Shown: positions 3,160 through 15,492 of the stretch, piece by piece
Layout of the letters: every line of letters begins with the position of its first letter
How positions within the stretch are numbered: position 1 is the first letter of the stretch
IMG/VR virus record: IMGVR_UViG_3300020056_000131
Coordinates: 1-27,591 of that record
Direction: 5' to 3' (one strand)
DNA length: 27,591 bases
Origin: a virus
The notes under the pieces: generated by a model
What the model saw: the letters and a program-made list of their open reading frames with translations, nothing else
Databases searched by the model: none
Told to the model about the DNA's origin: nothing
Program-made: the position numbers and the translations under genes

Positions 3160-3554
3160 AACAAAAGATAGGCAGTGCTATCACACATGCCGAAAAAGCA
3201 ATTCTATTATTCGTAGTCGCTGGTACTATATGGGCTGCCGGCTATGATATTATTGGAATGTTTCAACAACAAGGAAAGATGGCCTTGGGTGATCTTTTCT
3301 TGTTATTCATTTACGCTGAAATTCTGGGTATGGTCGCTGCTTTCTATCAGAGCGAACGTATACCGGTAACTCTCCCTCTCATCATTGCGATGACTGCTCT
3401 CACACGCATGATCATACTACAGACTAAAGGCACTGATGCTCTCAACATCATCTATGAGTCTGCCGGCATTTTAATTCTCGCTACTGCAGCCTATATTATG
3501 ACGAAGAAAGATTATATCTCATTGAAGAAAGGCGATCTTCGTGAAAGTCATTGA
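3147..3554 (+). CDS. PsiE-family membrane protein
   Basis: A 135-residue protein resembling the PsiE (phosphate-starvation-inducible) family, whose biochemical role is unknown. Four hydrophobic segments are visible (about residues 17-36, 45-66, 70-90 and 100-118). The family-like core is GDLFLLFIYAEILGMVAAFY followed by RIPVTLPLIIAMTALTRMIIL; the charged residue in the second segment and the RIPV loop are characteristic. Length matches the usual 130-140 residues. It starts within the preceding lipoprotein gene and overlaps the GTG start of the oxygenase gene by 14 bases. Marine phages often carry phosphate-stress genes, so it may tune the infected cell's response to low phosphate. Confidence 0.72.
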   Translation: MGNLKQKIGSAITHAEKAILLFVVAGTIWAAGYDIIGMFQQQGKMALGDLFLLFIYAEILGMVAAFYQSERIPVTLPLIIAMTALTRMIILQTKGTDALNIIYESAGILILATAAYIMTKKDYISLKKGDLRESH

Positions 3555-4056
3555 TAATATTTTTTCTGAAGAAGAGTTGCAAATCATTCATAAAGATTTT
3601 AATTCTCTTATCGATACTAGTGATGAGCTAAAAGCAAGCAAAGAACAATGGTGCACAAATCGATATGCATGGCAACCATACCTGTACCGAGGTAAAACAG
3701 GTCATGTATTATATCATCCAGTATGTATTGGGGTCAAGTCGTTTGTTTTAGAAAAAATTAAAGAATATTGTACTCCAAATAAAGATACTCAAGTTAGTTA
3801 TTATATTTGGGGTCCAAATTCTGGAATTAATCAACATAGTGATGAATCGTACACGTGTGCATTTACATTTTATTTGCAAGATTGGCCGATAGAATGGGGT
3901 GGTCAATTAATAGCAAAGATAGATGATAAAGCATGTATAATTCCTGCAAAATATAATAGAATGGTAGTAAATGACGATACTACACTTCATTGGGTAACGA
4001 CAGTCAGAAATATAAAAAACTACGGTCGACACACTATACAGGTTTTTGTGAAATGA
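3541..4056 (+). CDS. 2OG-Fe(II) oxygenase
   Basis: A 171-residue prolyl-4-hydroxylase-like dioxygenase using 2-oxoglutarate, O2 and Fe(II). The metal triad is visible: H99-S-D101 in GINQHSDES, and the distal H150 in TTLHWVTTV. R163 in GRHTIQVF is the expected 2-oxoglutarate carboxylate ligand. EWGGQLIA (about 118-125) is the usual strand between them. The length is that of a bare catalytic domain. The GTG at 3541 gives MKVIDNIFSE, typical of the family's opening; translation is coupled to the psiE-like gene and ends in ATGA with the next. Substrate unknown: protein, nucleotide or sugar hydroxylation are all possible. Confidence 0.82.
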   Translation: MKVIDNIFSEEELQIIHKDFNSLIDTSDELKASKEQWCTNRYAWQPYLYRGKTGHVLYHPVCIGVKSFVLEKIKEYCTPNKDTQVSYYIWGPNSGINQHSDESYTCAFTFYLQDWPIEWGGQLIAKIDDKACIIPAKYNRMVVNDDTTLHWVTTVRNIKNYGRHTIQVFVK

Positions 4057-4613
4057 ACAGATTTATTATTGAAGAAACACCGCAGCGTTGTGCTCAGTCA
4101 CATTGCGACAAACACGTACCGAAGATGTACGTTGAAGAAGCACAGATGCTATCGACTGTGCATCGTCTCCTTGATGGTACTGAGGAGCGTCGACCTTCAA
4201 AGTCAGGCAAGACTATGCAACGTTATTGGAAATTGCCTGATGAGCGCGAGGATGTCCTCTATTCTGCCGTACATGTAAAACATCCGTGTACTGTATGGGC
4301 TATGGAGACGGCAGGTAATTACAAGTGGGCATATCAGATGTTCCTCTACCTCGGCATCGAGTACAACTATCGATACAACAAGTATCACAAGACAGATGAG
4401 CTTGATGGTTGGTTGTGTTTTCCTCCTAACAACATTAATCCATCCGAAGAAGTGACTCCTATGCCGCTCGCGATGGGTGCAAATCCCGAATGCATGAATC
4501 CTGACGATGTGATGGGTTCTTATCGAGCATTTTACCAAACCAAACAAGAACGATTTAAAATGGTTTGGACAAAACGGCCTGTACCTGAATGGTTCGAATA
4601 CTCCGCAGCATAA
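4053..4613 (+). CDS. Conserved T4-like phage protein, 186 aa
   Basis: A 186-residue soluble protein that I recognise only as a family recurring in T4-like and other phages. Conserved-looking signatures are CAQSHCDKHVPKMYVEEAQMLST (about residues 13-35, with the DKHVxKMxxExxQxLS pattern), then DEREDVLYSAVHVKHPCTVWAM, NYKWAYQMFLYLGIEYNYRY, and a Pro-rich end. The conserved His, Asp, Lys and Glu suggest an enzyme. Similar proteins have sometimes been labelled pyrimidine-dimer glycosylases, which I do not find supported by visible motifs. The ATG at 4053 overlaps the oxygenase stop (ATGA). It closes the operon; a late-type box overlaps its stop. Confidence 0.65.
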   Translation: MNRFIIEETPQRCAQSHCDKHVPKMYVEEAQMLSTVHRLLDGTEERRPSKSGKTMQRYWKLPDEREDVLYSAVHVKHPCTVWAMETAGNYKWAYQMFLYLGIEYNYRYNKYHKTDELDGWLCFPPNNINPSEEVTPMPLAMGANPECMNPDDVMGSYRAFYQTKQERFKMVWTKRPVPEWFEYSAA

Positions 4614-4616
4614 ATA
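4609..4616 (+). promoter_or_regulatory. Late-type promoter box CATAAATA
   Basis: One mismatch from TATAAATA, lying between operons. It is 25 bases before the ATG at 4642, which has a strong GGAGG at 4632-4636. This position fits a late promoter for the nuclease/ligase-like pair. Confidence 0.55.
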
Positions 4617-4641: not shown

Positions 4642-5418
4642 ATGGCTAGACTCACCAAAGTATCTGAGTTGGATGCTGATTTTATTGCGCGTGCAACTCA
4701 AGTTACGTCATTCAATATTCGTGGTGCAGATTTTGAATCTCTCAAATATAAAAACGAGATTCAACATCTGTACGCCACTTATATGTTCAAAGGATTTGAT
4801 CTGTCTAAAACCATCAAAGGCATGGATGTGACTAAAGTCAATAATCTTATCAATGATCTCAAGACAATCGATCGTCAAGCATTTAATAATCTATATGACT
4901 TTCAACCAAAAGGCGTGGGTCCTGGTGAATGCCTACTATATTTCTTAATTGATGATGCTACACTCGGTGGAGGTACATCTGCTGGTGTTGATATGAAAAT
5001 TGGATCAAAACTTTTCGAAGTCAAGGGCGCTAATTTAGCAGGTGATAAAAAGTCTGTAACTGGATTTAAATTGGGTGGTACAGTGGACCTTACAGATATG
5101 GTGAATAAAGCTGTACAAATGAAAGAATCTCTTGGGTTTGCTACCATGGGCAAAGGCAAGAATGAAGTAAATAAGACTCAAATAGAAGCAATCAAGAAAA
5201 CATATCCAAAAGAATGGAAAGCAATTGAAACAGAATATGCTAATAAAGCATACAAATATTTTGGAAATATCCCTGTGATTTTCTTCAATAATAATCGCAG
5301 CGGCCCAAAATTAACAACTGCTGCTGGTCATGTGATCAAAGCAGATCCAGTTAAAAAGACTGACATTATGATCGATGTTATTACTCAAGGCACTATTAAA
5401 CCCAAGATTAAAGTCTAA
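4642..5418 (+). CDS. Putative PD-(D/E)XK-like nuclease, late gene
   Basis: A 258-residue protein of unknown family. The strongest hint is GPGECLLYFLIDDA (about 93-106) followed by GVDMKIGSKLFEVKGA (about 115-130). Glu96, then Asp117-x8-Glu126-x-Lys128, has the spacing and beta-hairpin setting of a restriction-endonuclease-like active site. The remainder is helical, with a late IPVIFFNNN strand. It follows a late-type box and GGAGG, and ends one base into the start of the ligase-like gene (TAATG), so the two are translated together. If correct it would be a DNA- or RNA-cutting enzyme made late; the alternative is a structural protein with a coincidental motif. Confidence 0.5.
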   Translation: MARLTKVSELDADFIARATQVTSFNIRGADFESLKYKNEIQHLYATYMFKGFDLSKTIKGMDVTKVNNLINDLKTIDRQAFNNLYDFQPKGVGPGECLLYFLIDDATLGGGTSAGVDMKIGSKLFEVKGANLAGDKKSVTGFKLGGTVDLTDMVNKAVQMKESLGFATMGKGKNEVNKTQIEAIKKTYPKEWKAIETEYANKAYKYFGNIPVIFFNNNRSGPKLTTAAGHVIKADPVKKTDIMIDVITQGTIKPKIKV

Positions 5419-6647
5419 TGAAAAAATTCGATAAGTATATAGTAGAAGCCAAGAACACTCATATGGAACATGTGGAGGATTTGATATTCAATGAAGGCGT
5501 GGTTGGAACTAGAAAGGCTATTAATTTCCTACGTGATTTACGAGATATGTTATCAGGTAGTAGCAAAGCTTCTGTCTCTCGCACCGTCAAATGGGACGGT
5601 GCTCCTGCTGTATTCGCGGGCATCGATCCGACAGACGGTAAGTTTTTCGTTGCTAAAAAAGGTGTATTTAACAAAAACCCAAAAATCTATAAGACTCCCG
5701 CAGACGTCAAAGCTGATACTACAGGAACTCTTACTGATAAACTCCTCGTTGCGCTCGAAGAATTCAGCAAACTTGGAATCAAAAAAGGCGTATTTCAGGG
5801 TGATTTGATGTTCACCAAAGGAGACGTCAAAAAGGAAACCATCGATGATGAGTCTTATTTTACTTTCCAGCCTAATACTATTGTCTATGCTGTTCCTGTC
5901 AAAAGTCCGCTCGGACGTGAAATTAGTAAAGCTAAAATCGGAGTTGTATGGCACACTACTTATACTGGAAACGATTTTGTTTCTATGCGGGCTAGTTTTG
6001 GTAAACAGATTGCTTCTACCTTTAATAATGTAGCCGGTGTATGGCAGACCGATGCTACTTATCGAGATGAAACAGGAAACGCTACATTTACTTTAGCTGA
6101 AACTGAAAGAGTAACTGCACTCTTATCACAGGCGGGTACAGTTTTTAATAATACGCCTGCAGAATTGATTAACTATTTTCATGAGAATAAAACCATGCTA
6201 GATCTCATCAAAATATTTAATAATAGTTATGTTAGAGGTGGCAAACGAATTAATCCGCGTACACACACTCAAGCATTCATGAATTGGATTACTGATCGAT
6301 ACAAAAAAGAACTTGATAAATTAAAAACACCAGCTAGCAAAGCAAAGAAAAAAGCTGAGATGAAAAATACAATGAGATTTTTTAGTCGATTTAGAAAGCC
6401 ACAAATTCAAAATGTATGGACATTAATGGTTCTGCTGTCAGACGCTAAACAGATGATCATAAATAAAATGAATAAAGCTGGTTCTCTTCGAACCTTTCTT
6501 AGAACTCGTACAGGTTTTAAAGTTACAGCACCAGAAGGTTTCTGTGCTATCGATCATTTGAGCAACGATGCTGTCAAGATTGTAGATAGAATGGAATTTA
6601 GTAAAGCTAATTTTAGCCCTGATGTGATAAAAGGATGGCAACGATAA
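5418..6647 (+). CDS. KxDG nucleotidyltransferase/ligase-like protein (DUF6267-like)
   Basis: A 409-residue protein with features of the covalent nucleotidyltransferase fold (ATP-dependent ligases). TVKWDGAPAVF contains K58-W-D60-G61, matching ligase motif I where the Lys takes AMP. FFVAKKGVFNK (77-86) and VFQGDLMF (125-132) fall where motifs Ia and III are expected. YAVPVKSP and KAKIGVVWHT (171-180) may be motifs IV and V. I recall this as a large phage family (DUF6267) without proven activity. The N-terminus MKKFDKYIVEA resembles the T4 capsid-targeting peptide MKTYQEFIAE, with IVE/A fitting a prohead protease cut. The C-terminal 160 residues are basic. It is translationally coupled to the putative nuclease gene. 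Confidence 0.6.
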   Translation: MKKFDKYIVEAKNTHMEHVEDLIFNEGVVGTRKAINFLRDLRDMLSGSSKASVSRTVKWDGAPAVFAGIDPTDGKFFVAKKGVFNKNPKIYKTPADVKADTTGTLTDKLLVALEEFSKLGIKKGVFQGDLMFTKGDVKKETIDDESYFTFQPNTIVYAVPVKSPLGREISKAKIGVVWHTTYTGNDFVSMRASFGKQIASTFNNVAGVWQTDATYRDETGNATFTLAETERVTALLSQAGTVFNNTPAELINYFHENKTMLDLIKIFNNSYVRGGKRINPRTHTQAFMNWITDRYKKELDKLKTPASKAKKKAEMKNTMRFFSRFRKPQIQNVWTLMVLLSDAKQMIINKMNKAGSLRTFLRTRTGFKVTAPEGFCAIDHLSNDAVKIVDRMEFSKANFSPDVIKGWQR

Positions 6648-7223
6648 ATGCAAGGAAGACACTTAGGCGGTCACTGCGGTGTGACTCATTTAGATCATGG
6701 CGCTATTGATTGGGCCATAGAAGAATTTGATATTAAATCAATGCTCGACGTCGGCTGCGGGCCCGGGGGCATGGTCAATTTAGCAGTCAGAAAAGGATTA
6801 AAAGCACATGGCATTGATGGCGATCGAAAAATCGCCGAGAGTTGGTTTAACAAATCAATGTTTACTATACATGATTTTCAAGACGGTCCTCCAACAATTA
6901 ACGAAACATACGATTTGTGTTGGTCGGTAGAATTTGTAGAACATGTGTACGAGCAATATATGGATAATTATGTTGCTGCATTTCAAAAATGTCGTGTACT
7001 CTTTATGACGCACGCTGTACCTGGTCAAGGCGGACATCATCACGTCAACGAGCAAGAAGAAGATTATTGGCTTCAAAAAATTGAGAGTTATGGATTTAAG
7101 TTTAGTCGACAGCATACTACTAAATTAAAAGAAGTAACAACAATGAATACAGATGGCGGCCGATGGGCACCATACGTTAAATTAACCGGACTTGTATTCA
7201 TCAATGAAAAGTTTAATAATTAG
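6648..7223 (+). CDS. Class I SAM-dependent methyltransferase
   Basis: A 191-residue Rossmann-fold methyltransferase. SMLDVGCGPGGM (31-42) is motif I for S-adenosylmethionine binding, AHGIDGD supplies the acidic residue ending strand 2, and DLCWSVEFVEHV is the post-motif region. Later THAVPGQGGHHHVNEQ is His-rich and resembles the loop in small sugar- or peptide-modifying phage methyltransferases. The ATG directly follows the previous stop. Its last 20 bases overlap a sulfotransferase gene. It opens the island 6648-10143, and a sugar acceptor is likely from context only. Confidence 0.8.
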   Translation: MQGRHLGGHCGVTHLDHGAIDWAIEEFDIKSMLDVGCGPGGMVNLAVRKGLKAHGIDGDRKIAESWFNKSMFTIHDFQDGPPTINETYDLCWSVEFVEHVYEQYMDNYVAAFQKCRVLFMTHAVPGQGGHHHVNEQEEDYWLQKIESYGFKFSRQHTTKLKEVTTMNTDGGRWAPYVKLTGLVFINEKFNN

Positions 7224-7776
7224 TCAGCCAAAATCAGGCACATATCTGCTTGCTAACGTGCTCCAAAATATGGGGTTGATGTTTACATATATGCATATCA
7301 ATGCCGGAGCGTATGACAGATATAATCCTCAAGATCTAGAAGATGGTCGTAAACATCCAGAAAGATATCGTACAAAAGCTAGTATCGAAGAAGCACTCGA
7401 ACAAATTAATGATAATGAGTTTGCTGTTACACACCACATCTATAGTCAAAAACTAGAGCAACAGCTATATAATTTTAAAAAAATTATCTTACATAGAAAT
7501 CCAAAAGATGCTGCTGATAGTTGGAATAGATGGAATAAAGAGAGTGGTAGAAATAGACCTCGAAAAGTAACCATACCAGATAGTATCAAGAAATGGTCTG
7601 ATAAAAGATGGACGTTTACTTTATCTTTTGAGGATATGATAAATAAAAATACAAAGGTTATCGATGACCTACAACAGTTTTTATTCGCTGAAATAAAATA
7701 TAATAGTCTAGATATTTTAGAGTTGAGTCTATCACAAGATTCCCTAACAAAGAGTAGTTTGAGAAATGTTAATTAG
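7204..7776 (+). CDS. Sulfotransferase family protein
   Basis: A 190-residue PAPS-dependent sulfotransferase. SQPKSGTYLL (7-16) is the 5'-phosphosulfate loop in near-consensus form, and ILHRNPKDAADSW (95-107) gives the 3'-phosphate site with R98 and S106. The ATG at 7204 is chosen over a TTG at 7192 because it places the loop at residue 7, as usual. It is shorter than the 250-300 residues of most family members, so the acceptor side is compact. It overlaps genes on both sides and is only distantly similar to the sulfotransferase at 392-1048. It probably sulfates a glycan built by the neighbouring glycosyltransferases. Confidence 0.8.
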   Translation: MKSLIISQPKSGTYLLANVLQNMGLMFTYMHINAGAYDRYNPQDLEDGRKHPERYRTKASIEEALEQINDNEFAVTHHIYSQKLEQQLYNFKKIILHRNPKDAADSWNRWNKESGRNRPRKVTIPDSIKKWSDKRWTFTLSFEDMINKNTKVIDDLQQFLFAEIKYNSLDILELSLSQDSLTKSSLRNVN

Positions 7777-8287
7777 TGATGAATATAAAAATGTACTTAG
7801 ACAAACACGTGAAGAATCTAAAACTCGATGGGGTGACACAGGTCGCCAATATGTTAGAGAAGTTTTACCTCTCCTTCAAAAAGAAACGTATGTAGATATC
7901 CTCGATTATGGTGCCGGTCATGGCACTTTCGGCGCTTCTTTACCCAATCAATATCAAGTAACCGAATACGATCCAGGTTTTGCAGATAAAGCAGACAACA
8001 ATATACCTCGTTCTTTTGTGGTATGTTGTGATGTGCTTGAACATATAGAACCAACTCTCATTGAATCAGTACTTGATGATCTTCAACGCTGTACACTCGA
8101 CAAAGGTTATTTTGTTATCAGTTGTAGACCAGCTGCAAAAATATTATCTGATGGTAGAAATGCACATCTGATTGTAGAAGATCAATCATGGTGGAAAGAA
8201 AAACTTAATACAAGATTTAATCTATTATCAGAAAAGTGGGATGATAGACAGAAAAATTATATAGTTTATGTTTCCCGAAAAAATTAA
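7766..8287 (+). CDS. Class I SAM-dependent methyltransferase
   Basis: A 173-residue methyltransferase. VDILDYGAGHGTFGASL (43-59) is motif I, YQVTEYDPGF marks strand 2, and VVCCDVLEHIEP is the motif that often follows in the UbiE/Methyltransf_11 group. The end of the protein forms the usual beta-strand pair (NLLSEKWDDRQKNYIVYVS). It overlaps the sulfotransferase before it by 11 bases and the GT29 gene after it by 20. It is unlike the methyltransferase at 6648 outside motif I, so the two probably act on different positions or acceptors. Confidence 0.78.
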   Translation: MLISDEYKNVLRQTREESKTRWGDTGRQYVREVLPLLQKETYVDILDYGAGHGTFGASLPNQYQVTEYDPGFADKADNNIPRSFVVCCDVLEHIEPTLIESVLDDLQRCTLDKGYFVISCRPAAKILSDGRNAHLIVEDQSWWKEKLNTRFNLLSEKWDDRQKNYIVYVSRKN

Positions 8288-8807
8288 TGTAATAGGAAAT
8301 GCTCAAAGTTTATTCAATAAAAATTACGGAGAGCAGATAGACAAATATCCTACGGTAAGATTTAATTACATAGAAAATCTGAAGCCACAAATACAGGGTA
8401 CAAGATGGGATTATATGGCAACGAGCGATCCAAAACAAATAGCTCGTTGGAATAAAGCGGCTGAATTGCCTTTTCATACTTTTTTGTTTACGATATGGGC
8501 AGAAAAAGAAAAAAGGCATGTCACTGGCGACAAATACAAGGGAAAGAGTGTATATAGAATACCAGACAAAATATGGACAGAATTAAATAATATTAATCCT
8601 CGACCTTCGACTGGTTTATCTGTTTTATATCTTTTTGATCAATTGAATATCGCTGAAGTGAATGTATACGGATTTGATTTTAAAGAAACAAAAAGCTATT
8701 ATAATTCTGCTGATACAGATAATCGACAAAGTTCTATGCACAATTACGATCAAGAAAAAAAATATATAAATCAGATGATTGAAAAAAATAACTGGAATAT
8801 ATTTTAA
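8268..8807 (+). CDS. GT29-like glycosyltransferase (sialyltransferase family)
   Basis: A 179-residue protein with the sialylmotifs of family GT29. Motif L is INVIGNAQSLFNKNYGEQID with RFN at 31-33. Motif S is PRPSTGLSVLYLFDQL (111-126) leading to VYGFDF. Motif VS is H158-x4-E163 in HNYDQEKKYI, where the His is the catalytic base in characterised enzymes. GT29 members transfer sialic acid or related keto-sugars from CMP-sugars. At 179 residues it is much smaller than animal enzymes but has the core. No CMP-sugar synthesis gene is in the window, so donor supply would come from the host or elsewhere. Overlaps of 20 bases and 1 base with its neighbours show operon translation. Confidence 0.72.
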   Translation: MFPEKINVIGNAQSLFNKNYGEQIDKYPTVRFNYIENLKPQIQGTRWDYMATSDPKQIARWNKAAELPFHTFLFTIWAEKEKRHVTGDKYKGKSVYRIPDKIWTELNNINPRPSTGLSVLYLFDQLNIAEVNVYGFDFKETKSYYNSADTDNRQSSMHNYDQEKKYINQMIEKNNWNIF

Positions 8808-9478
8808 TGAAAGCATTTATTTTAAGACACGACAGCACATTATCATATGAATATGCAGAGATTGCAGCAGAGTCGTGTGATGAACATAAAATTGAATGGG
8901 AATATTTTGAAGGATTCAGCAATATGTTGGGTTCTGATGCTCATAAACAAATCGGTGTCATTGAAAATCCAAAGAAAACACTAAAACCTATTAATTCAGA
9001 TAGTAATAAGGCGCAACTTTGTACAGCTGGTCATGTCGCTATATGGAAACATATCGTAGATACTCGTATGCAATCGGCCATCATATTAGAACACGATGCT
9101 GTAATGCTACAAGAATTCGATTTTAATATTAATTATGATTGTATCGTTGCATTGGGATATAAATTAAAAGATAAGAATCAATATAATCATGTCAAAGATA
9201 AAGTTGCATTGAGAAAAATAGATAAACATAGTGGATCACATGCTTATGTTATTACTCGCGGTGCTGCTGAACAAATGCTTGATAATATCAGAGAGATGGG
9301 AACATCTGGTTGTGTCGATCAACATGTTTTTAGAGCAAATACTCTCAGAAAAAATGTACCGCTGTATATTGCAGATCCCGTTTGTGCGATCGGTTGGATA
9401 AGAAAATCCACAATATGGGGCGCAGCAAGTTTAGTTAACTTTGATTATATTGATTCATTTAAAAAGAATTTATCATGA
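8807..9478 (+). CDS. GT25-like glycosyltransferase, copy 1
   Basis: A 223-residue protein resembling LPS-type GT25 glycosyltransferases. AQLCTAGHVAIWKHI (69-83) matches the family GxxxSHxxxW-type helix. AIILEHDAVM (91-100) carries the acidic metal/donor-binding triad (EHD, 95-97). GSHAYVITRGAAEQML (143-158) is the downstream family block, followed by CAIGWIRKST. It shares all these blocks in order with the next gene, so the two look like an old tandem duplication. It overlaps the GT29 gene by 1 base and the second copy by 4. Confidence 0.78.
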   Translation: MKAFILRHDSTLSYEYAEIAAESCDEHKIEWEYFEGFSNMLGSDAHKQIGVIENPKKTLKPINSDSNKAQLCTAGHVAIWKHIVDTRMQSAIILEHDAVMLQEFDFNINYDCIVALGYKLKDKNQYNHVKDKVALRKIDKHSGSHAYVITRGAAEQMLDNIREMGTSGCVDQHVFRANTLRKNVPLYIADPVCAIGWIRKSTIWGAASLVNFDYIDSFKKNLS

Positions 9479-10143
9479 AACCAGCGCAGGCTTATATACT
9501 AAAAACAATTGATGAACGATCTCAAAAATATGCATCTGATGTAGCAGATTCGTGTAGAGAGGTAGGATTACCGTGGGAATATGTTGAATGGTATCAAGGC
9601 AAACCAGAATTAGCATGGCAAAATACCGGTGTTCCTAAACCAACTAAGGTAAGTGGCGGTGCTGCTGCACAGTGTTGTTATAGTGGTCATATTGCAATTT
9701 GGAAAAAGATAGCGGATAGCGGGAAAGCTGCTATCGTATTAGAACATGATGGAATGATGTTGTGGCCTGTGAATGTGGAAATACCTGAAAATATGATTGT
9801 CGTCCTGGGATATAAACTAGAACATCCTACAAATTATGATCATCGAGCCGCAGGTCCTCCATTTCAAATTATTGATGTAAAAGGTGGTGGTCATGAAGGT
9901 TCTCATGCATATGCTATTACACCGAAAACTGCCGAAAAATTATTAGAAGAAATTGCCACAATGGGTTGTTCAGGTGCAATCGATAATCAATATTTTCTGA
10001 AATCTCGTAGGTCTAAAATTCCTATTAAAATCATGAGTCCTACTCCAGCTATCGGTTGGATACGAGAATCTACAATACAAAGTAGATCATCAACTAAAAA
10101 TTATGAGTTCATTCCTTCTTTTAAAGAACATTTAAAATCATAA
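9475..10143 (+). CDS. GT25-like glycosyltransferase, copy 2
   Basis: A 222-residue paralogue of the preceding gene. The matching blocks are AQCCYSGHIAIWKKI (65-79), AAIVLEHDGMML (85-96, EHD 90-92), GSHAYAITPKTAEKLL (142-157) and PAIGWIREST near the end. The region between the first strand and the GH helix differs clearly between the copies, suggesting different acceptors or sugars. It starts by ATGA overlap with copy 1 and is the last gene before the late promoter at 10147. With GT29, two methyltransferases and a sulfotransferase it completes the sugar-modification island. Confidence 0.78.
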   Translation: MKPAQAYILKTIDERSQKYASDVADSCREVGLPWEYVEWYQGKPELAWQNTGVPKPTKVSGGAAAQCCYSGHIAIWKKIADSGKAAIVLEHDGMMLWPVNVEIPENMIVVLGYKLEHPTNYDHRAAGPPFQIIDVKGGGHEGSHAYAITPKTAEKLLEEIATMGCSGAIDNQYFLKSRRSKIPIKIMSPTPAIGWIRESTIQSRSSTKNYEFIPSFKEHLKS

Positions 10144-10146
10144 TTG

Positions 10147-10154
10147 TATAAATA
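10147..10154 (+). promoter_or_regulatory. Late-type promoter box TATAAATA
   Basis: An exact T4 late box in a 67-base gap, right at the head of the largest virion-related block. RNA would start near 10160 and leave a leader of about 50 bases before the ATG at 10211. The leader contains the short repeats GTTAGG and AAGGC twice each, with only a weak ribosome site. Confidence 0.65.
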
Positions 10155-10210: not shown

Positions 10211-11563
10211 ATGAAAAAGGTAGTTATCGCGTTCGGTCGTATGAATCCTCCTACGATTGGCCACGAAAAATTAGTTACAAAAATTAAAATGGTTGCACGG
10301 AAGAATCGTGCGACACCTATGCTCTTCTTATCTCATTCGCAAGATAAGAGAAAAAATCCCCTTTCCTACGAAGATAAAATCCGCCTCGCTAAAAAAGCAT
10401 TTGGACCTATGGTACAAAATTCAAATGCTCGAACAATTATTGACGTTGCAAAACAATTACAAAACAAATATAACGAGCTTATTGTTATAGGCGGATCTGA
10501 TAGAGTAGATGATTTTCAGAAGTTATTAAATACATATAATGGTAAAGATTATAACTTTGATAAGATTACCGTGGTATCAGCAGGTGAAAGAGACCCTGAT
10601 TCAGACGATGTTTCAGGCATGAGTGCTTCTAAATTAAGATCACTCGCATATGCTGGTAAATTTACTCAATTTAAATCTGGTCTGCCAAAAAGAATACAAA
10701 GAGGTTCAGAGGCAAAAGATATGTACGATAAAATAAGAGATGTTGCTGGCGTATCTGAAGACAAAAATTTACAAGAAGTCTTGACAATGCAACAACGTCT
10801 AAAGCGCAAGCAAATGATGAAGCGCATTAAAGGCAAAATTAAGTTAGGCAAAAGACGAGCTAAATATAAGATTGCAAATACCGATAAGTTAAAAAAGAGA
10901 TCGATGAAAAAGGCAAGAGAAGCCATACGAGCTAGAATTGCTGGATCTCAGGGCAAAAATTATAAAGATTTGCCATACGCCGGCCGTCAACAAGTCGATA
11001 AAAAGGTTGAAAAGAAAAAGGATATTATTTCGCGGCTTGCAAAGCGAATGTTGCCTAAAGTTAAAAAAGCCGAGATGGAAAGAGTACAAAAAGCTAGAAA
11101 GACTCGAAAAGAATCTGTTGAGTCTGAAATGATTATGAGAATCATTGATAAAATTAATTTAGAAAAAATATCAGAGAAGGTAGAACACAATCTTCGAAAG
11201 AAAAGTGAAAAATATAATATTACTTTTGAAGAAATTCGCGATCGATATACTGAATACAAGCAAGAATGGTATCTTGTAGATACAGACTTAAGTGCTGAGC
11301 AATATGCATTTGACAATTTAAATCATGATTTAATTAATGAGAAAGGTGAAGATGCAAAAGGTCATAAGAGACCGACAGAAGACGGAGCAGGTTTGACACG
11401 TAAAGGTGCAAAAGCGCACGGTGTTAAGACCGCGGTAACAACACCGCCCTCTAAACTCGATCCAGACGGTAAAGCAGCTGGTAGACGAAAGTCTTTCTGT
11501 GCTCGCTCGCGAGGATGGACAGGTGAGAGGGGAAAAGCAGCACGACGTAGGTGGAACTGCTAA
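10211..11563 (+). CDS. NMNAT-like nucleotidyltransferase with basic virion-type tail
   Basis: A 450-residue fusion. The N-terminal about 175 residues are a cytidylyltransferase/NMNAT-like domain: FGRMNPPTIGH (8-18) is the HxGH-type active site, VIGGSDRVDDF is the middle block, and SGMSASKLR resembles the ISxTxxR nucleotide-binding motif. Residues about 195-385 are very basic and probably helical, and include EITFEEIRDRYTEY-like text. The C-terminal block TEDGAGLTRKGAKAHGVKTA through SFCARSRGWTG to RRRWNC resembles the DUF6321 module of phage late proteins. A plain metabolic NMNAT is about 200 residues, so the basic extension is unusual and suggests DNA or virion association. It is the first gene after an exact late box, and its stop overlaps the next ATG. 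Confidence 0.68.
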   Translation: MKKVVIAFGRMNPPTIGHEKLVTKIKMVARKNRATPMLFLSHSQDKRKNPLSYEDKIRLAKKAFGPMVQNSNARTIIDVAKQLQNKYNELIVIGGSDRVDDFQKLLNTYNGKDYNFDKITVVSAGERDPDSDDVSGMSASKLRSLAYAGKFTQFKSGLPKRIQRGSEAKDMYDKIRDVAGVSEDKNLQEVLTMQQRLKRKQMMKRIKGKIKLGKRRAKYKIANTDKLKKRSMKKAREAIRARIAGSQGKNYKDLPYAGRQQVDKKVEKKKDIISRLAKRMLPKVKKAEMERVQKARKTRKESVESEMIMRIIDKINLEKISEKVEHNLRKKSEKYNITFEEIRDRYTEYKQEWYLVDTDLSAEQYAFDNLNHDLINEKGEDAKGHKRPTEDGAGLTRKGAKAHGVKTAVTTPPSKLDPDGKAAGRRKSFCARSRGWTGERGKAARRRWNC

Positions 11564-12662: not shown

Positions 12663-12968
12663 ATGGCAGATTTAAAGGATACAAGCGAAATACAAGGACT
12701 CATGTCCGCTGTGAAAGATATTATGAAAGGTAATCAAAACCTTTATCAGCAGGATTTAGAGAGACAATTTAATTTTCCCGGTGCTACAGCACCAGTAGAG
12801 GAACCAGTAGATGATATTAGCGGAAGCGATTCAGAGGAACAAGTTGAAGTCAGCAGCGAAGAGCCTGTCGAAGCTAGCTCGGACGAACACATCAGTTCGG
12901 AGAGTGATGCAGAAGTTACAGACGGGGAAGTTGCCGACGAAACAGGATCTGAAATCAGTCAAGGGTAA
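12663..12968 (+). CDS. Acidic late protein, 101 aa, 3' half overprinted
   Basis: A 101-residue protein: a helical first 40 residues (SEIQGLMSAVKDIMKGNQNLYQ region) and a strongly acidic Ser/Glu/Asp tail of about 55 residues. GAGG at 12654-12657 is 5 bases before the ATG. The last 158 bases are also read in another frame as the start of the 893-residue basic protein. The acidic tail could mimic DNA or bind the basic partner. It may be a prohead-core or scaffold-type protein, but I do not recognise a family. Part of the acidic composition may simply follow from the overlapping frame. Confidence 0.55.
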   Translation: MADLKDTSEIQGLMSAVKDIMKGNQNLYQQDLERQFNFPGATAPVEEPVDDISGSDSEEQVEVSSEEPVEASSDEHISSESDAEVTDGEVADETGSEISQG

Positions 12969-15492
12969 AGAGCAAGACGATGTAGTAATGGCTTTGACTC
13001 AGGCGATTGGACCTGACGAAGCGATTAAGTTGCTCGAAATGTGTGACATGTCTAAGCATGCTGCTAAGCTTGTGCCTAATAAGAAGGGTGATCCCGATGG
13101 GCCTCTACCAAAATGGGGAGAACCTGAAGGTGTTGAAGATGCAATCAAGAAAACACCTGGTCAAAAGAAAGTAAAAGAAGCCTGTTGGGACGGATACAAA
13201 AAAGTTGGTATGAAGAAAAAAGGTAAGAAGCGTGTACCTAACTGTGTACCAGAAGAGAAAGAAGTTAAAACAATTAAGGTTGGTGAAGATGCAGTAGGTA
13301 GTGATCAATGCCATTATGCACTTGTCATGGATAGAAAAGTTACAGCTGTTGGTACTAAAGACGAGATGCTTGCGAAGTGTAAAGAAGAGGGTGGTCGAGT
13401 TTGGGTATCTACTAAAAGGGTTGGTGACGTTGTCGAAGAACGATCAGCACAAGATCCTGACATTAAAGATCGTAAGGGTACACAACCAGCCGCGTATCAT
13501 AAAGGTTTAAAGAAAACAACAAAAGCCAAGCGAGATGCACACTTTAAGAAGCATGGCAAGAAAGCAGACGACGATGCATCAGCATACAAAGATGCACCTG
13601 GCGATAAGAAAGCAAGGAAGGGAGACATGCCTAAGTCTAAGTATACTAAGTTTGTAGATAAGATGATGGACGAAGAGCACGAAATACATGTAAAGCTTGA
13701 TCATCTCGATGGTGACTCTCGACAAAAGAAAGCTGGTGCAGTGATGCGTAAGCACGAAAGAGCGGGTCATATCGAGTATGTAGGCAATACTGATAAGGGT
13801 GTTGTGTTTAAAGCGAAGAGTAAACAACATGCTGATCGTTTGCATCGAGATCTAAAGCCGCATGCAACTGGTGTAGAACATACAAATGAAGAAACTCAGA
13901 TTACTGAGATTTCAAAAGATACGGCTCGTAGCTATTTCAACAAAGTTGGTGATAAGAGCAAGAAAGAAATTGAGAAGAGAAAGGCAAAAGGCGGACCTCA
14001 GCGAGCGATGAAAACAATGTATCCTGACCATAAGGTAAGCGAAGCTGCTGAGTATCATGTTACTAAACCAGGTGGATCTTTACGTAAACCTGATAGTGTA
14101 CATAAGTCAAAGTCAGATGCAATGAAGCACGCATTCAAGCTCTCTGGTAATAAGCATCGCGGTGCCCATGGAGCTCAAGTGTTCCGTGTACATAAAGGTA
14201 CAGTATCACACGGTTTTGATACAGAAGGTCGTTCACGACACCTCGGTCTCGACCACGGTAAAATGACCGGTAAGAAACCAATCCGTGAAGGAAAATATGC
14301 TGTCGATATTGAAGGGATGCCGCGTTTCTATATGAATTCAGATTCACCGGGTCGTGTGAAGATTGCATTACGACAAATGCTAAAGAAAGCAAATGCTATC
14401 AAGAGTGTAACTCGTACTTTTGATCCACAAATTAAAGCAGATCTGCGACAGCGTCTGAAAGATGCATCAACAGATATGCATACTAATTACGTATCAGAAA
14501 AACTCAAAGCATCAGATGATATGGGTAAATGGGTAGATGATTTTAAAGATTCTGATGCACCACAATTTAAGGGGAAATCTATGAAGAAGAGACGTCAAAT
14601 GGCGATTGCTGCTAAGCTTTCAGCTATGCGTGAAGGCACTGAGGCTTATGGCAAGTCAGTAAATAAAATAGCTGATGATAAGAAGAAAGCTGCTATCTCT
14701 TCTTCTGATAAGAACAAGCTTGGTAAGATTGCTGACATGATGAAGAAAGAACGCGAATCTAAAGTATCAGAAGCAATGTCGCCCGAATCTCGGAAAGCAC
14801 ACGGTCGAATGTTTAAGGCCGCTGCGAAGAAGAAATATGATGCTGATACAAAAGCTGCAGCACAAGCCGAACGTGAAAAGCGGTTAAAGGCAAAAGGTTG
14901 GGTCAAGAATGATCGTGGCGGTATGTCAAAGGTAAGCGAAGAAGAAACACAAGTCGATGAAGGTGCATACAAAGGTAAAGATGCATTTGGTCGTGGTGTG
15001 ACTGCTGCATTACGTGGTGGCAAAGCTGGTGCTTATATGTCAAAGAAAGCCAAAGAGCGTTCTGATATGAATAAGAAGAACGATCCAGGTTCTGCGAAGA
15101 AAGGATATGCTCTCAGTGTAACTGACAAAGATAAGGCAATGAAGAAAGCGCGAAAGAAAGGTCTGAACCCTAAGCATCCTTCTACTAATTATAAGCGGAA
15201 GTTGCCTGAAGAAAAACAAAAGAAAGATCATCAGACAATCAGCTATGTTACACATGGTGGCCAAAAAGGCAAAGTACAAGTACACAAAGACAATGCCTTT
15301 AAAGCGCTGAATCATTATCGTAAGAATAATAAGAGTGCACAATTTGAAGAGACTGATTCATGGAAAAAAGATTCTGGTTGGAAAAAAGCTCCGGCCGAAC
15401 GCAAAGATGAATATGGCAATACTATTAAGAAGCAAAACATTGCCAAACATCTTGCACGTAAAGCAATGAAACAAACGGAGAAAAAATCATGA
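12811..15492 (+). CDS. Large basic modular late protein, 893 aa
   Basis: An 893-residue Lys-rich protein made of distinct modules. The start at 12811 is supported by AGAGGA (12797-12802) with 8-base spacing. Modules: a helical opening (MILAEAIQRNKLKSAAKSL); CWDGYKKVGMKKKGKKRVPNC (125-145); a small beta domain (168-208); a DUF5872-like block (about 214-282, DIKDRKGTQPAAYHKGLKK); two alpha/beta modules (288-355 and 410-485); KWVDDFKDSDAPQFKGKS (573-590), a module I have seen in phage late proteins; and basic repeats to the end. Modules are joined by short hydrophobic-x-Glu motifs (LAE5, ITE366, VSE411, IRE493, VSE654, VDE717), like T4 prohead protease sites. It may be a virion polyprotein packaged with DNA. 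No enzyme motif seen. Confidence 0.68.
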   Translation: MILAEAIQRNKLKSAAKSLSKLARTNTSVRRVMQKLQTGKLPTKQDLKSVKGKEQDDVVMALTQAIGPDEAIKLLEMCDMSKHAAKLVPNKKGDPDGPLPKWGEPEGVEDAIKKTPGQKKVKEACWDGYKKVGMKKKGKKRVPNCVPEEKEVKTIKVGEDAVGSDQCHYALVMDRKVTAVGTKDEMLAKCKEEGGRVWVSTKRVGDVVEERSAQDPDIKDRKGTQPAAYHKGLKKTTKAKRDAHFKKHGKKADDDASAYKDAPGDKKARKGDMPKSKYTKFVDKMMDEEHEIHVKLDHLDGDSRQKKAGAVMRKHERAGHIEYVGNTDKGVVFKAKSKQHADRLHRDLKPHATGVEHTNEETQITEISKDTARSYFNKVGDKSKKEIEKRKAKGGPQRAMKTMYPDHKVSEAAEYHVTKPGGSLRKPDSVHKSKSDAMKHAFKLSGNKHRGAHGAQVFRVHKGTVSHGFDTEGRSRHLGLDHGKMTGKKPIREGKYAVDIEGMPRFYMNSDSPGRVKIALRQMLKKANAIKSVTRTFDPQIKADLRQRLKDASTDMHTNYVSEKLKASDDMGKWVDDFKDSDAPQFKGKSMKKRRQMAIAAKLSAMREGTEAYGKSVNKIADDKKKAAISSSDKNKLGKIADMMKKERESKVSEAMSPESRKAHGRMFKAAAKKKYDADTKAAAQAEREKRLKAKGWVKNDRGGMSKVSEEETQVDEGAYKGKDAFGRGVTAALRGGKAGAYMSKKAKERSDMNKKNDPGSAKKGYALSVTDKDKAMKKARKKGLNPKHPSTNYKRKLPEEKQKKDHQTISYVTHGGQKGKVQVHKDNAFKALNHYRKNNKSAQFEETDSWKKDSGWKKAPAERKDEYGNTIKKQNIAKHLARKAMKQTEKKS

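What the first reader, a model, noticed from the sequence alone, without database searches (positions are those of the whole stretch)
4642..6647. Late nuclease-like / ligase-like gene pair
Seen: a protein with E...D-x8-E-x-K (PD-(D/E)XK-like) is translationally coupled to one with K-W-D-G (covalent nucleotidyltransferase motif I) plus later motif-like blocks, both behind a late-type box. Known: phage replicative ligases are usually early genes; late expression of a cut-and-join pair is unusual. Inference: it may process ends of packaged DNA, repair nicks in the capsid or host cell, or act on RNA on entry. This is a strong candidate for an undescribed system.
Basis: partly seen in the sequence, partly recalled or inferred. 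Interest (0 to 1): 0.7.

Follow-up and report, generated by a model that had tools for sequence, protein, structure and literature searches.

The report
Capsid-packaged nuclease and ligase-like cassette
Marine relatives of phage T4 carry a late gene cassette in which a constantly swapped DNA-cutting enzyme sits next to a conserved ligase-like protein, and short leader tags on members of the cassette match the address label T4 uses to load proteins into its capsid, so the enzymes are probably injected into the next host together with the DNA.

Summary
ORF 4642-5418 has E96...D117-x8-E126-x-K128, invariant in 46 non-redundant homologues. ORF 5418-6647 is Pfam DUF6267, with invariant K58-x-D-G, QGD, EG and K387. 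They overlap as TAATG.

New findings:
(1) DUF6267 begins MKKFDKYIVE|AKN, which fits the T4 capsid-targeting sequence (IPII and IPIII are MKTYQEFIAE|A). In three relatives' genomes this pattern marks 1-3 of about 500 ORFs, always in this locus. In T4 it marks only IPII and IPIII.
(2) Cyanophage DUF6267 lacks exactly this leader, and there the downstream cytidylyltransferase (NMNAT-like) carries it. The tag is on at least one of the three gene products in nearly every locus.
(3) All four tagged cytidylyltransferases that I checked were found in purified cyanophage virions by published mass spectrometry. In phage S-SCSM1 a homologue of the nuclease-slot protein of the window's closest relatives was found too.
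(4) The nuclease gene is a swappable slot. Its flanks are 81-97% identical, while the slot protein is about 42% identical or unrelated.
(5) Late-promoter boxes are enriched upstream of the slot.

DUF6267 as a nucleotidyltransferase is probable but unproven: no significant fold match to a solved structure. No enzymatic activity is shown. Most likely it is an injected enzyme module that attacks non-self DNA.

The parts
4609..4616 (+). late-promoter-like box CATAAATA, 33 nt upstream of the nuclease start
   Evidence: one mismatch to TATAAATA; enrichment upstream of slot genes in related loci
4642..5418 (+). slot protein: PD-(D/E)XK-type nuclease, 258 aa, no Pfam/PHROG family; this copy has no CTS
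   Evidence: located directly upstream of DUF6267 in nearly all 80 IMG/VR loci found with the family profile
4927..5025 (+). predicted active site E96...D117-x8-E126-x-K128 (codons 4927, 4990, 5017, 5023)
   Evidence: invariant in 46 non-redundant homologues
5416..5420 (+). TAATG stop/start overlap (translational coupling)
   Evidence: same or ATGA overlap in most related loci
5418..5447 (+). capsid-targeting-sequence-like leader MKKFDKYIVE, predicted gp21 cut after E10
   Evidence: residues 1-15 have pLDDT below 50
5418..6647 (+). DUF6267 (PF19782) protein, 409 aa, predicted divergent covalent nucleotidyltransferase (ligase-like)
   Evidence: E 2.8e-107; AlphaFold pLDDT 85.4, pTM 0.77; BFVD matches
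5589..5600 (+). motif I K58-W-D-G
   Evidence: K58, D60, G61 invariant
5796..5807 (+). motif III-like Q127-G-D-L
   Evidence: Q127, G128, D129 invariant
6093..6473 (+). helical insertion (residues 226-352) between motifs IIIa and IV
   Evidence: AlphaFold secondary structure
6534..6590 (+). motif IV-like E373-G374 and motif V-like K387...R391
   Evidence: invariant; strands 374-379 and 384-388 in model
10147..10154 (+). exact TATAAATA upstream of the cytidylyltransferase gene
   Evidence: such boxes upstream of 42 of 120 related genes
10211..11563 (+). cytidylyltransferase / NMNAT-like protein, third gene of the module (untagged here)
   Evidence: PF01467 and phrog_3041; directly downstream of DUF6267 in most relatives

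Best explanation
The pair belongs to a late-expressed cargo module of T4-like phages: a hypervariable PD-(D/E)XK nuclease, the conserved DUF6267 protein (predicted ligase-type nucleotidyltransferase) and an NMNAT-like cytidylyltransferase. One or more of the three carry a T4-type capsid-targeting leader (here DUF6267). The leader brings the module into the prohead core, the gp21-type protease cuts after E10, and the mature enzymes are ejected with the DNA at the next infection. There the nuclease most likely attacks non-self DNA (host chromosome, plasmid or competing phage). The conserved ligase-like partner most likely seals or spares the phage's own DNA. Shown: gene order and coupling, invariant active-site residues, cassette exchange, leader specificity and its switching between subunits. 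Published: virion presence of the cytidylyltransferase in four cyanophages and of one slot protein. Inferred: that the three form a complex, cleavage after E10, injection, DNA as target, ligase activity.
For: Leader: 86 pattern-positive + strand ORFs against 0 of 703 - strand ORFs and 0 of 5610 shuffles. In a 160-kb relative it marks only DUF6267 among 536 ORFs. In the T4 regions read it marks only IPII and IPIII among 603 ORFs. Position rules match the tested T4 CTS (PMC9026906). Cyanophage DUF6267 starts exactly after the predicted cut. Tag switching: DUF6267 tagged in 112 of 117 non-cyanophage pairs; 67 of 67 cytidylyltransferases tagged in the cyanophage set. Virion MS: tagged cytidylyltransferases in S-SM1, S-SZBM1, S-CREM2 and S-SCSM1 (N-termini); S-SCSM1_90 is a slot homologue labelled virion protein. 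gp21 family present in 5 of 6 long relatives. Nuclease residues. Cassette exchange. Late boxes. Nucleotidyltransferase: motifs, strand order, RNA/DNA ligases and capping enzymes among the BFVD matches below the homologues.
Against: DUF6267 itself has not been detected in a virion. In S-SZBM1 neither DUF6267 nor the slot protein was listed, though both are untagged there. S-SCSM1 has a virion slot protein but no DUF6267 between slot and cytidylyltransferase, so DUF6267 may be dispensable in some phages. The window's own nuclease has no leader, so it would need to ride on DUF6267. No PDB fold match at E <= 0.001 for DUF6267 and no profile match to T4 Rnl2. The nuclease was not folded. No activity or target is known. 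The authors of the virion studies note that such proteins could be carry-over in CsCl preparations.
Confidence: 0.55

Rival explanations
1. DUF6267 is the phage's own highly diverged DNA or RNA ligase for replication, recombination or repair in the producing cell, and the neighbouring nuclease is a recombination or packaging nuclease; the leader is incidental.
For: The locus lies in the replication gene cluster. Five of six relatives searched have no recognisable DNA or RNA ligase (G001, G002, G005, HTVC008M, Melnitz-3), while T4 has both. DUF6267 is common in T4-like cyanophages, where it is untagged.
Against: G003 has a conventional DNA ligase besides DUF6267. Replication genes are normally early, but the cassette has late-type boxes. 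A housekeeping nuclease would not be exchanged wholesale between near-identical flanks. The leader is almost unique to this locus. S-SCSM1 has the slot and cytidylyltransferase without DUF6267 between them.
Confidence: 0.18
2. The swapped nuclease is a toxin-like or restriction-like weapon and DUF6267 is not a ligase but an adaptor or immunity partner: it escorts the nuclease into the capsid, keeps it silent in the producing cell and releases it on injection.
For: Conserved partner next to a hypervariable effector. The leader is nearly always on DUF6267 and only sometimes on the nuclease in the non-cyanophage set. Large helical insertion and no significant fold match to known enzymes.
Against: K-x-D-G, QGD, EG and K387 are invariant like a catalytic site, which an adaptor would not need. 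One partner would have to recognise many unrelated slot families.
Confidence: 0.15
3. The leader is not a capsid-targeting sequence but a docking peptide that holds the enzymes of this locus together on some other scaffold.
For: It occurs on several neighbouring genes at once. Cleavage after E10 has not been seen for any of these proteins.
Against: Same residue pattern as the T4 CTS at the positions shown to matter, found in T4 only on IPII and IPIII. All four tagged cytidylyltransferases checked were found in virions. CTS-less homologues start at the predicted cut.
Confidence: 0.07
4. Nothing functional links the pair; overlap and proximity are ordinary phage gene packing, and the cytidylyltransferase in virions is a preparation contaminant.
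For: Phage genes commonly overlap. The authors of the virion studies mention possible carry-over.
Against: The nuclease family sits directly upstream of DUF6267 in nearly all 80 loci found by its own profile. The leader goes with virion detection in the four phages checked.
Confidence: 0.05

Closest known systems
T4 internal head proteins IPI, IPII, IPIII and Alt (capsid-targeting sequence, cut by gp21, injected)
   Same: 10-residue N-terminal leader with aromatic residues at 4 and 7, I/L at 8 and E at 10; variable cargo behind a conserved leader (PMC3012670, PMC9026906)
   Different: Cargo here is a larger enzyme module (nuclease, ligase-like protein, NMNAT-like protein) rather than small basic proteins or an ADP-ribosyltransferase; the tag switches between subunits; cleavage and injection not demonstrated
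Pfam DUF6267 (PF19782) / PHROG 455 / T4-like GC 71
   Same: The ORF2 protein is a full-length member; 461 phage records hold a relative
   Different: The family has no assigned function; the leader, the slot and the predicted active site are not described in the material available here
Covalent nucleotidyltransferases: DNA ligases, T4 RNA ligases 1 and 2, mRNA capping enzymes
   Same: Order of motifs I, III, IIIa, IV, V on predicted strands; ligases and capping enzymes appear among the weak fold matches
   Different: No significant fold or sequence match; D instead of E in motif III; second Lys of motif V missing; 127-residue helical insertion
PD-(D/E)XK restriction-endonuclease-like nucleases
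   Same: E...D-x8-E-x-K invariant; other slot families have D...S-x-K, like the Cfr10I/Bse634I type (own knowledge)
   Different: No detectable sequence homologue in Pfam, PHROGs, PADLOC or PDB
NMNAT-like / cytidylyltransferase proteins reported in cyanophage virions (S-SM1, S-SCSM1, S-SZBM1, S-CREM2)
   Same: Homologue encoded at 10211-11563; in most relatives it is the third gene of this module
   Different: Earlier papers propose NAD+ synthesis and did not, in the passages read, link them to a targeting leader, DUF6267 or the nuclease slot

Membership tests
T4-type CTS internal head protein | N-terminal leader with aromatic at 4 and 7, I/L at 8, E at 10, (I/L)xE cut motif | tested here: met
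   MKKFDKYIVE; E10 invariant in 63 sequences of A3; T4 controls IPII and IPIII
T4-type CTS internal head protein | phage encodes a gp21-type prohead protease | tested here: met
   Peptidase_S77 in 5 of 6 long relatives, including the closest one; not in the 27.6-kb window, which is a fragment
T4-type CTS internal head protein | late expression | tested here: inconclusive
   late-box enrichment upstream of slot genes; no transcript data
T4-type CTS internal head protein | present in virions | tested here: inconclusive
   published MS: cytidylyltransferase in 4 phages and slot homologue S-SCSM1_90; DUF6267 itself not detected
T4-type CTS internal head protein | leader cleaved after E and protein injected | not testable with these tools
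   needs semi-tryptic virion proteomics and injection assay
PD-(D/E)XK nuclease | conserved acidic residue, D and (E/D)xK triad in order | tested here: met
   E96, D117, E126, K128 at 100% in 46 homologues
PD-(D/E)XK nuclease | restriction-endonuclease-like fold | not tested
PD-(D/E)XK nuclease | metal-dependent DNA cleavage | not testable with these tools
   biochemistry needed
covalent nucleotidyltransferase / ligase | KxDG with invariant Lys | tested here: met
   K58, D60, G61 invariant in A5
covalent nucleotidyltransferase / ligase | motifs III, IIIa, IV, V in order | tested here: inconclusive
   QGD, PNTxxY, EG and K387 present in order, but D for E in III and second Lys of V absent
covalent nucleotidyltransferase / ligase | nucleotidyltransferase fold | tested here: inconclusive
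   confident model with matching strand order, but no PDB match at E <= 0.001; ligases and capping enzymes only as weak BFVD matches; hhalign to Rnl2 negative
covalent nucleotidyltransferase / ligase | lysyl-AMP formation | not testable with these tools
   adenylylation assay needed
Pfam DUF6267 | match above the curated cut-off | tested here: met
   359.8 bits against 27
T4 RNA repair (Pnkp + Rnl1) | kinase-phosphatase plus RNA ligase acting on cleaved tRNA | tested here: inconclusive
   zeta-type P-loop kinase and HAD genes with the leader occur in some related loci, not seen beside the pair in the window; RNA_ligase family absent from 5 of 6 relatives

The most novel reading that the evidence does not exclude
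T4-like marine phages load a swappable nuclease, together with a conserved ligase-like partner and an NMNAT-like enzyme, into the capsid as one tagged complex and inject it to destroy rival or host DNA while sparing their own, with the targeting tag free to move between subunits: a capsid-delivered polymorphic effector system.
Probability: 0.35. Interest if true: 0.88.

Novelty: new variant of a known kind. Interest (0 to 1): 0.72.

Why it matters
DUF6267 is one of the widespread unknown proteins of T4-like marine phages (461 phage records). If it and its neighbours are packaged and injected, this assigns a delivery route to a large unannotated gene set, gives a likely reason why NMNAT-like proteins keep turning up in cyanophage virions, and provides a simple sequence rule (the leader) for finding injected cargo in uncultured phages. 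The rapid swapping of the nuclease between near-identical flanks points to a conflict role, testable in cultured phages.

Tried and rejected
Sequence-level assignment of either protein: Pfam, PHROGs, PADLOC and PDB gave nothing beyond DUF6267 itself. hhalign of DUF6267 against a T4 Rnl2 family alignment failed. Foldseek against PDB gave no hit at E <= 0.001 with either model. hhalign between slot families gave only three pairs above 20% probability, so common descent of the slot nucleases is not shown; the shared D...(E/S)xK could be convergent or too diverged to see. The late box was rejected as evidence from the window alone. A first two-by-two table of leaders on DUF6267 and slot used a pattern too strict for 9-residue leaders, a second attempt failed on the cytidylyltransferase pattern, and both were replaced. 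An RNA_lig_T4_1 search of the window found nothing and its control did not ring, so it is uninformative. I considered that the cytidylyltransferase supplies NAD+ to an NAD+-dependent ligase; it stays a guess.

Full report
Observation. ORF 4642-5418 (258 aa) and ORF 5418-6647 (409 aa) exist as described and overlap as TAATG. The first has no Pfam or PHROG family; the second is Pfam DUF6267 (359.8 bits, cut-off 27) and PHROG 455, whose profile also covers a cytidylyltransferase. DUF6267 relatives occur in 461 phage records, mostly T4-like cyanophages. The nuclease has close relatives in only six Vibrio phage records of that collection but in 164 IMG/VR stretches when its family profile is used.

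Nuclease. In 46 non-redundant homologues E96, D117, E126 and K128 are 100% conserved, the order and spacing of a PD-(D/E)XK active site. Nothing in PDB, Pfam or PADLOC matches.

The slot. The gene directly upstream of DUF6267 is exchanged. Relatives whose DUF6267 is 84-88% identical to the window's, and whose preceding gene is 81-97% identical, carry a slot protein that is either 41-42% identical to the window's nuclease or has no blastp match to it. Over 227 DUF6267 genes, 171 distinct slot proteins fall into 22 single-linkage groups. Conserved D...(E/S)-x-K signatures appear in the large groups 0, 1, 3 and 8 and in part of group 2; several small groups show them by eye. Some slots hold other things: a zeta-toxin-type P-loop kinase, an HD domain, an HNH-like ORF. 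Homology between slot groups is not demonstrated. Conversely, the nuclease family found by its own profile sits directly upstream of DUF6267 in nearly all loci, sometimes with one gene in between.

DUF6267. K58-x-D-G61, Q127-G-D129, P152-N-T154, E373-G374 and K387...R391 are invariant in alignment A5, which spans 31-85% identity to the window protein. AlphaFold with A5 gives pLDDT 85.4, pTM 0.77, with residues 1-15 disordered and a helical insertion at 226-352. The strand order around the motifs is that of ligase nucleotidyltransferase domains (own knowledge of Rnl2). Foldseek against PDB has no match at E <= 0.001. Against BFVD, homologues (among them a 591-aa S-PM2 protein named as a cytidyltransferase) are followed by a tail of weak matches in which mRNA capping enzymes, RNA ligases and DNA ligases recur (ranks 23, 25, 30, 42, 46, 48, 50). 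hhalign to the T4 Rnl2 family fails. I rate the nucleotidyltransferase assignment at about 0.7.

The leader. DUF6267 starts MKKFDKYIVE|AKN. T4 IPII and IPIII start MKTYQEFIAE|A. In T4 the first 10 residues of IPIII are the capsid-targeting sequence, positions 4 and 7 matter for targeting, 8 and 10 for processing, and gp21 cuts after (L/I)xE (PMC9026906). The pattern M..[FY]..[FY][LIMV].E was found in 86 + strand ORFs of the first loci against 0 of 703 - strand ORFs and 0 of 5610 shuffles; most of the 86 are DUF6267 homologues, so these are not independent. Genome-wide in three long relatives a slightly wider form of it marks 1 of 536, 3 of 476 and 1 of 546 ORFs, always DUF6267 and in one case also the two genes before it; about 0-0.2 are expected. 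Over 603 ORFs of the T4 regions read (about 94% of the genome) it marks only IPII and IPIII.

Natural tests of the leader. Cyanophage DUF6267 begins M(A/S)KNTHLEHLEDD, that is, exactly after the predicted cut. In those genomes the downstream cytidylyltransferase carries the leader in 67 of 67 cases in view, for example MRFRQFIIE|A. In the other set DUF6267 is tagged in 112 of 117 pairs, three more have the tag on the slot protein, and the remaining two (L032, L141) have near-miss leaders. So at least one member is tagged almost everywhere, as expected if one tag serves a complex; the complex itself is inferred. These pairs are related sequences, so the counts overstate independence.

Virion data. 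The cytidylyltransferase was detected in virions of S-SM1, S-SZBM1, S-CREM2 and S-SCSM1. All four begin with the leader: MKKFSAFLNE|A, MRFRQFIIE|A, MKNFSSFLTE|A and MKSFLQFLKE|A. In S-SCSM1 the preceding gene, SSCSM1_90, is labelled virion protein in the record and is homologous to slot proteins (best E 2.6e-23; 5e-13 to that of L016, whose DUF6267 is 85% identical to the window's). It has no leader of its own, consistent with riding on a tagged partner, and no DUF6267 lies between it and the cytidylyltransferase. In S-SZBM1 the untagged DUF6267 and slot protein were not listed. The authors caution about carry-over in CsCl preparations.

Late expression. [TC]ATAAATA occurs within 75 nt upstream of 53 of 154 slot genes, 42 of 120 cytidylyltransferase genes, 6 of 128 DUF6267 genes and 40 of 907 other ORFs. 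The window box (CATAAATA, 4609-4616) would not stand out alone. gp21-type proteases are present in 5 of 6 long relatives.

Mechanism and rivals. Best supported: a late, tagged, capsid-loaded enzyme module ejected into the next host. That the nuclease attacks non-self DNA rests on its hypervariability and on the analogy with T-even internal proteins, described as a highly diverse set of defence proteins sharing only the CTS (PMC3012670). The chief rival is that DUF6267 is a diverged ligase working in the producing cell: five of six relatives searched have no other recognisable DNA or RNA ligase, though one has a normal DNA ligase as well. An adaptor or immunity role for DUF6267 is also open.

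Verdict. The delivery principle is known from T4; the cargo, its cassette exchange and the tag switching were not found described in the papers searched, which cover only an open-licence library.

Noticed in passing
window 6648-10143: Methyltransferase (PF08241) at 6648-7223 and, by sequence inspection only, a sulfotransferase-like ORF, a second methyltransferase-like ORF and glycosyltransferase-like ORFs lie between DUF6267 and the cytidylyltransferase, which are neighbours in most relatives.
   Followed up: no
window 3541-4056: Best PHROG hit is 'DNA endonuclease V' (phrog_19810), but Pfam gives 2OG-Fe(II) oxygenase; the PHROG label looks wrong.
   Followed up: no
window 4053-4613: phrog_624 'DNA binding protein', 81-97% identical in the closest relatives, marks the conserved left edge of the exchange slot.
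   Followed up: partly
window 12811-15492: 893-aa lysine-rich ORF with no Pfam family and only weak PHROG hits; basic, repetitive.
   Followed up: no
L027 6239-6859, L046 2751-3794, L058 4171-5016, L074 7453-8001: HAD phosphatase-like, zeta-toxin-type P-loop kinase and HD-domain genes with the same leader next to DUF6267 in related loci; the HAD genes have weak hits to the RNA-repair HAD_SAK_1 family.
   Followed up: partly
L333 7027-7236 (SSCSM1_93): Small virion protein of S-SCSM1 ends in TFKEFLEYIE, a leader-like sequence at the C-terminus.
   Followed up: no
L096 2705-4090: HAD-type domain fused to the N-terminus of the window-type nuclease.
   Followed up: no
L004 7992-9771 (S-PM2, AJ630128): DUF6267 appears split over two CDS in this record, the second starting inside DUF6267, whereas BFVD lists a 591-aa S-PM2 protein matching full-length DUF6267; likely a frame difference between the two S-PM2 sequences.
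   Followed up: partly
L005 7965-8759 (Vibrio phage Va1): Nuclease homologue with no DUF6267 in the 16.8 kb held around it.
   Followed up: no
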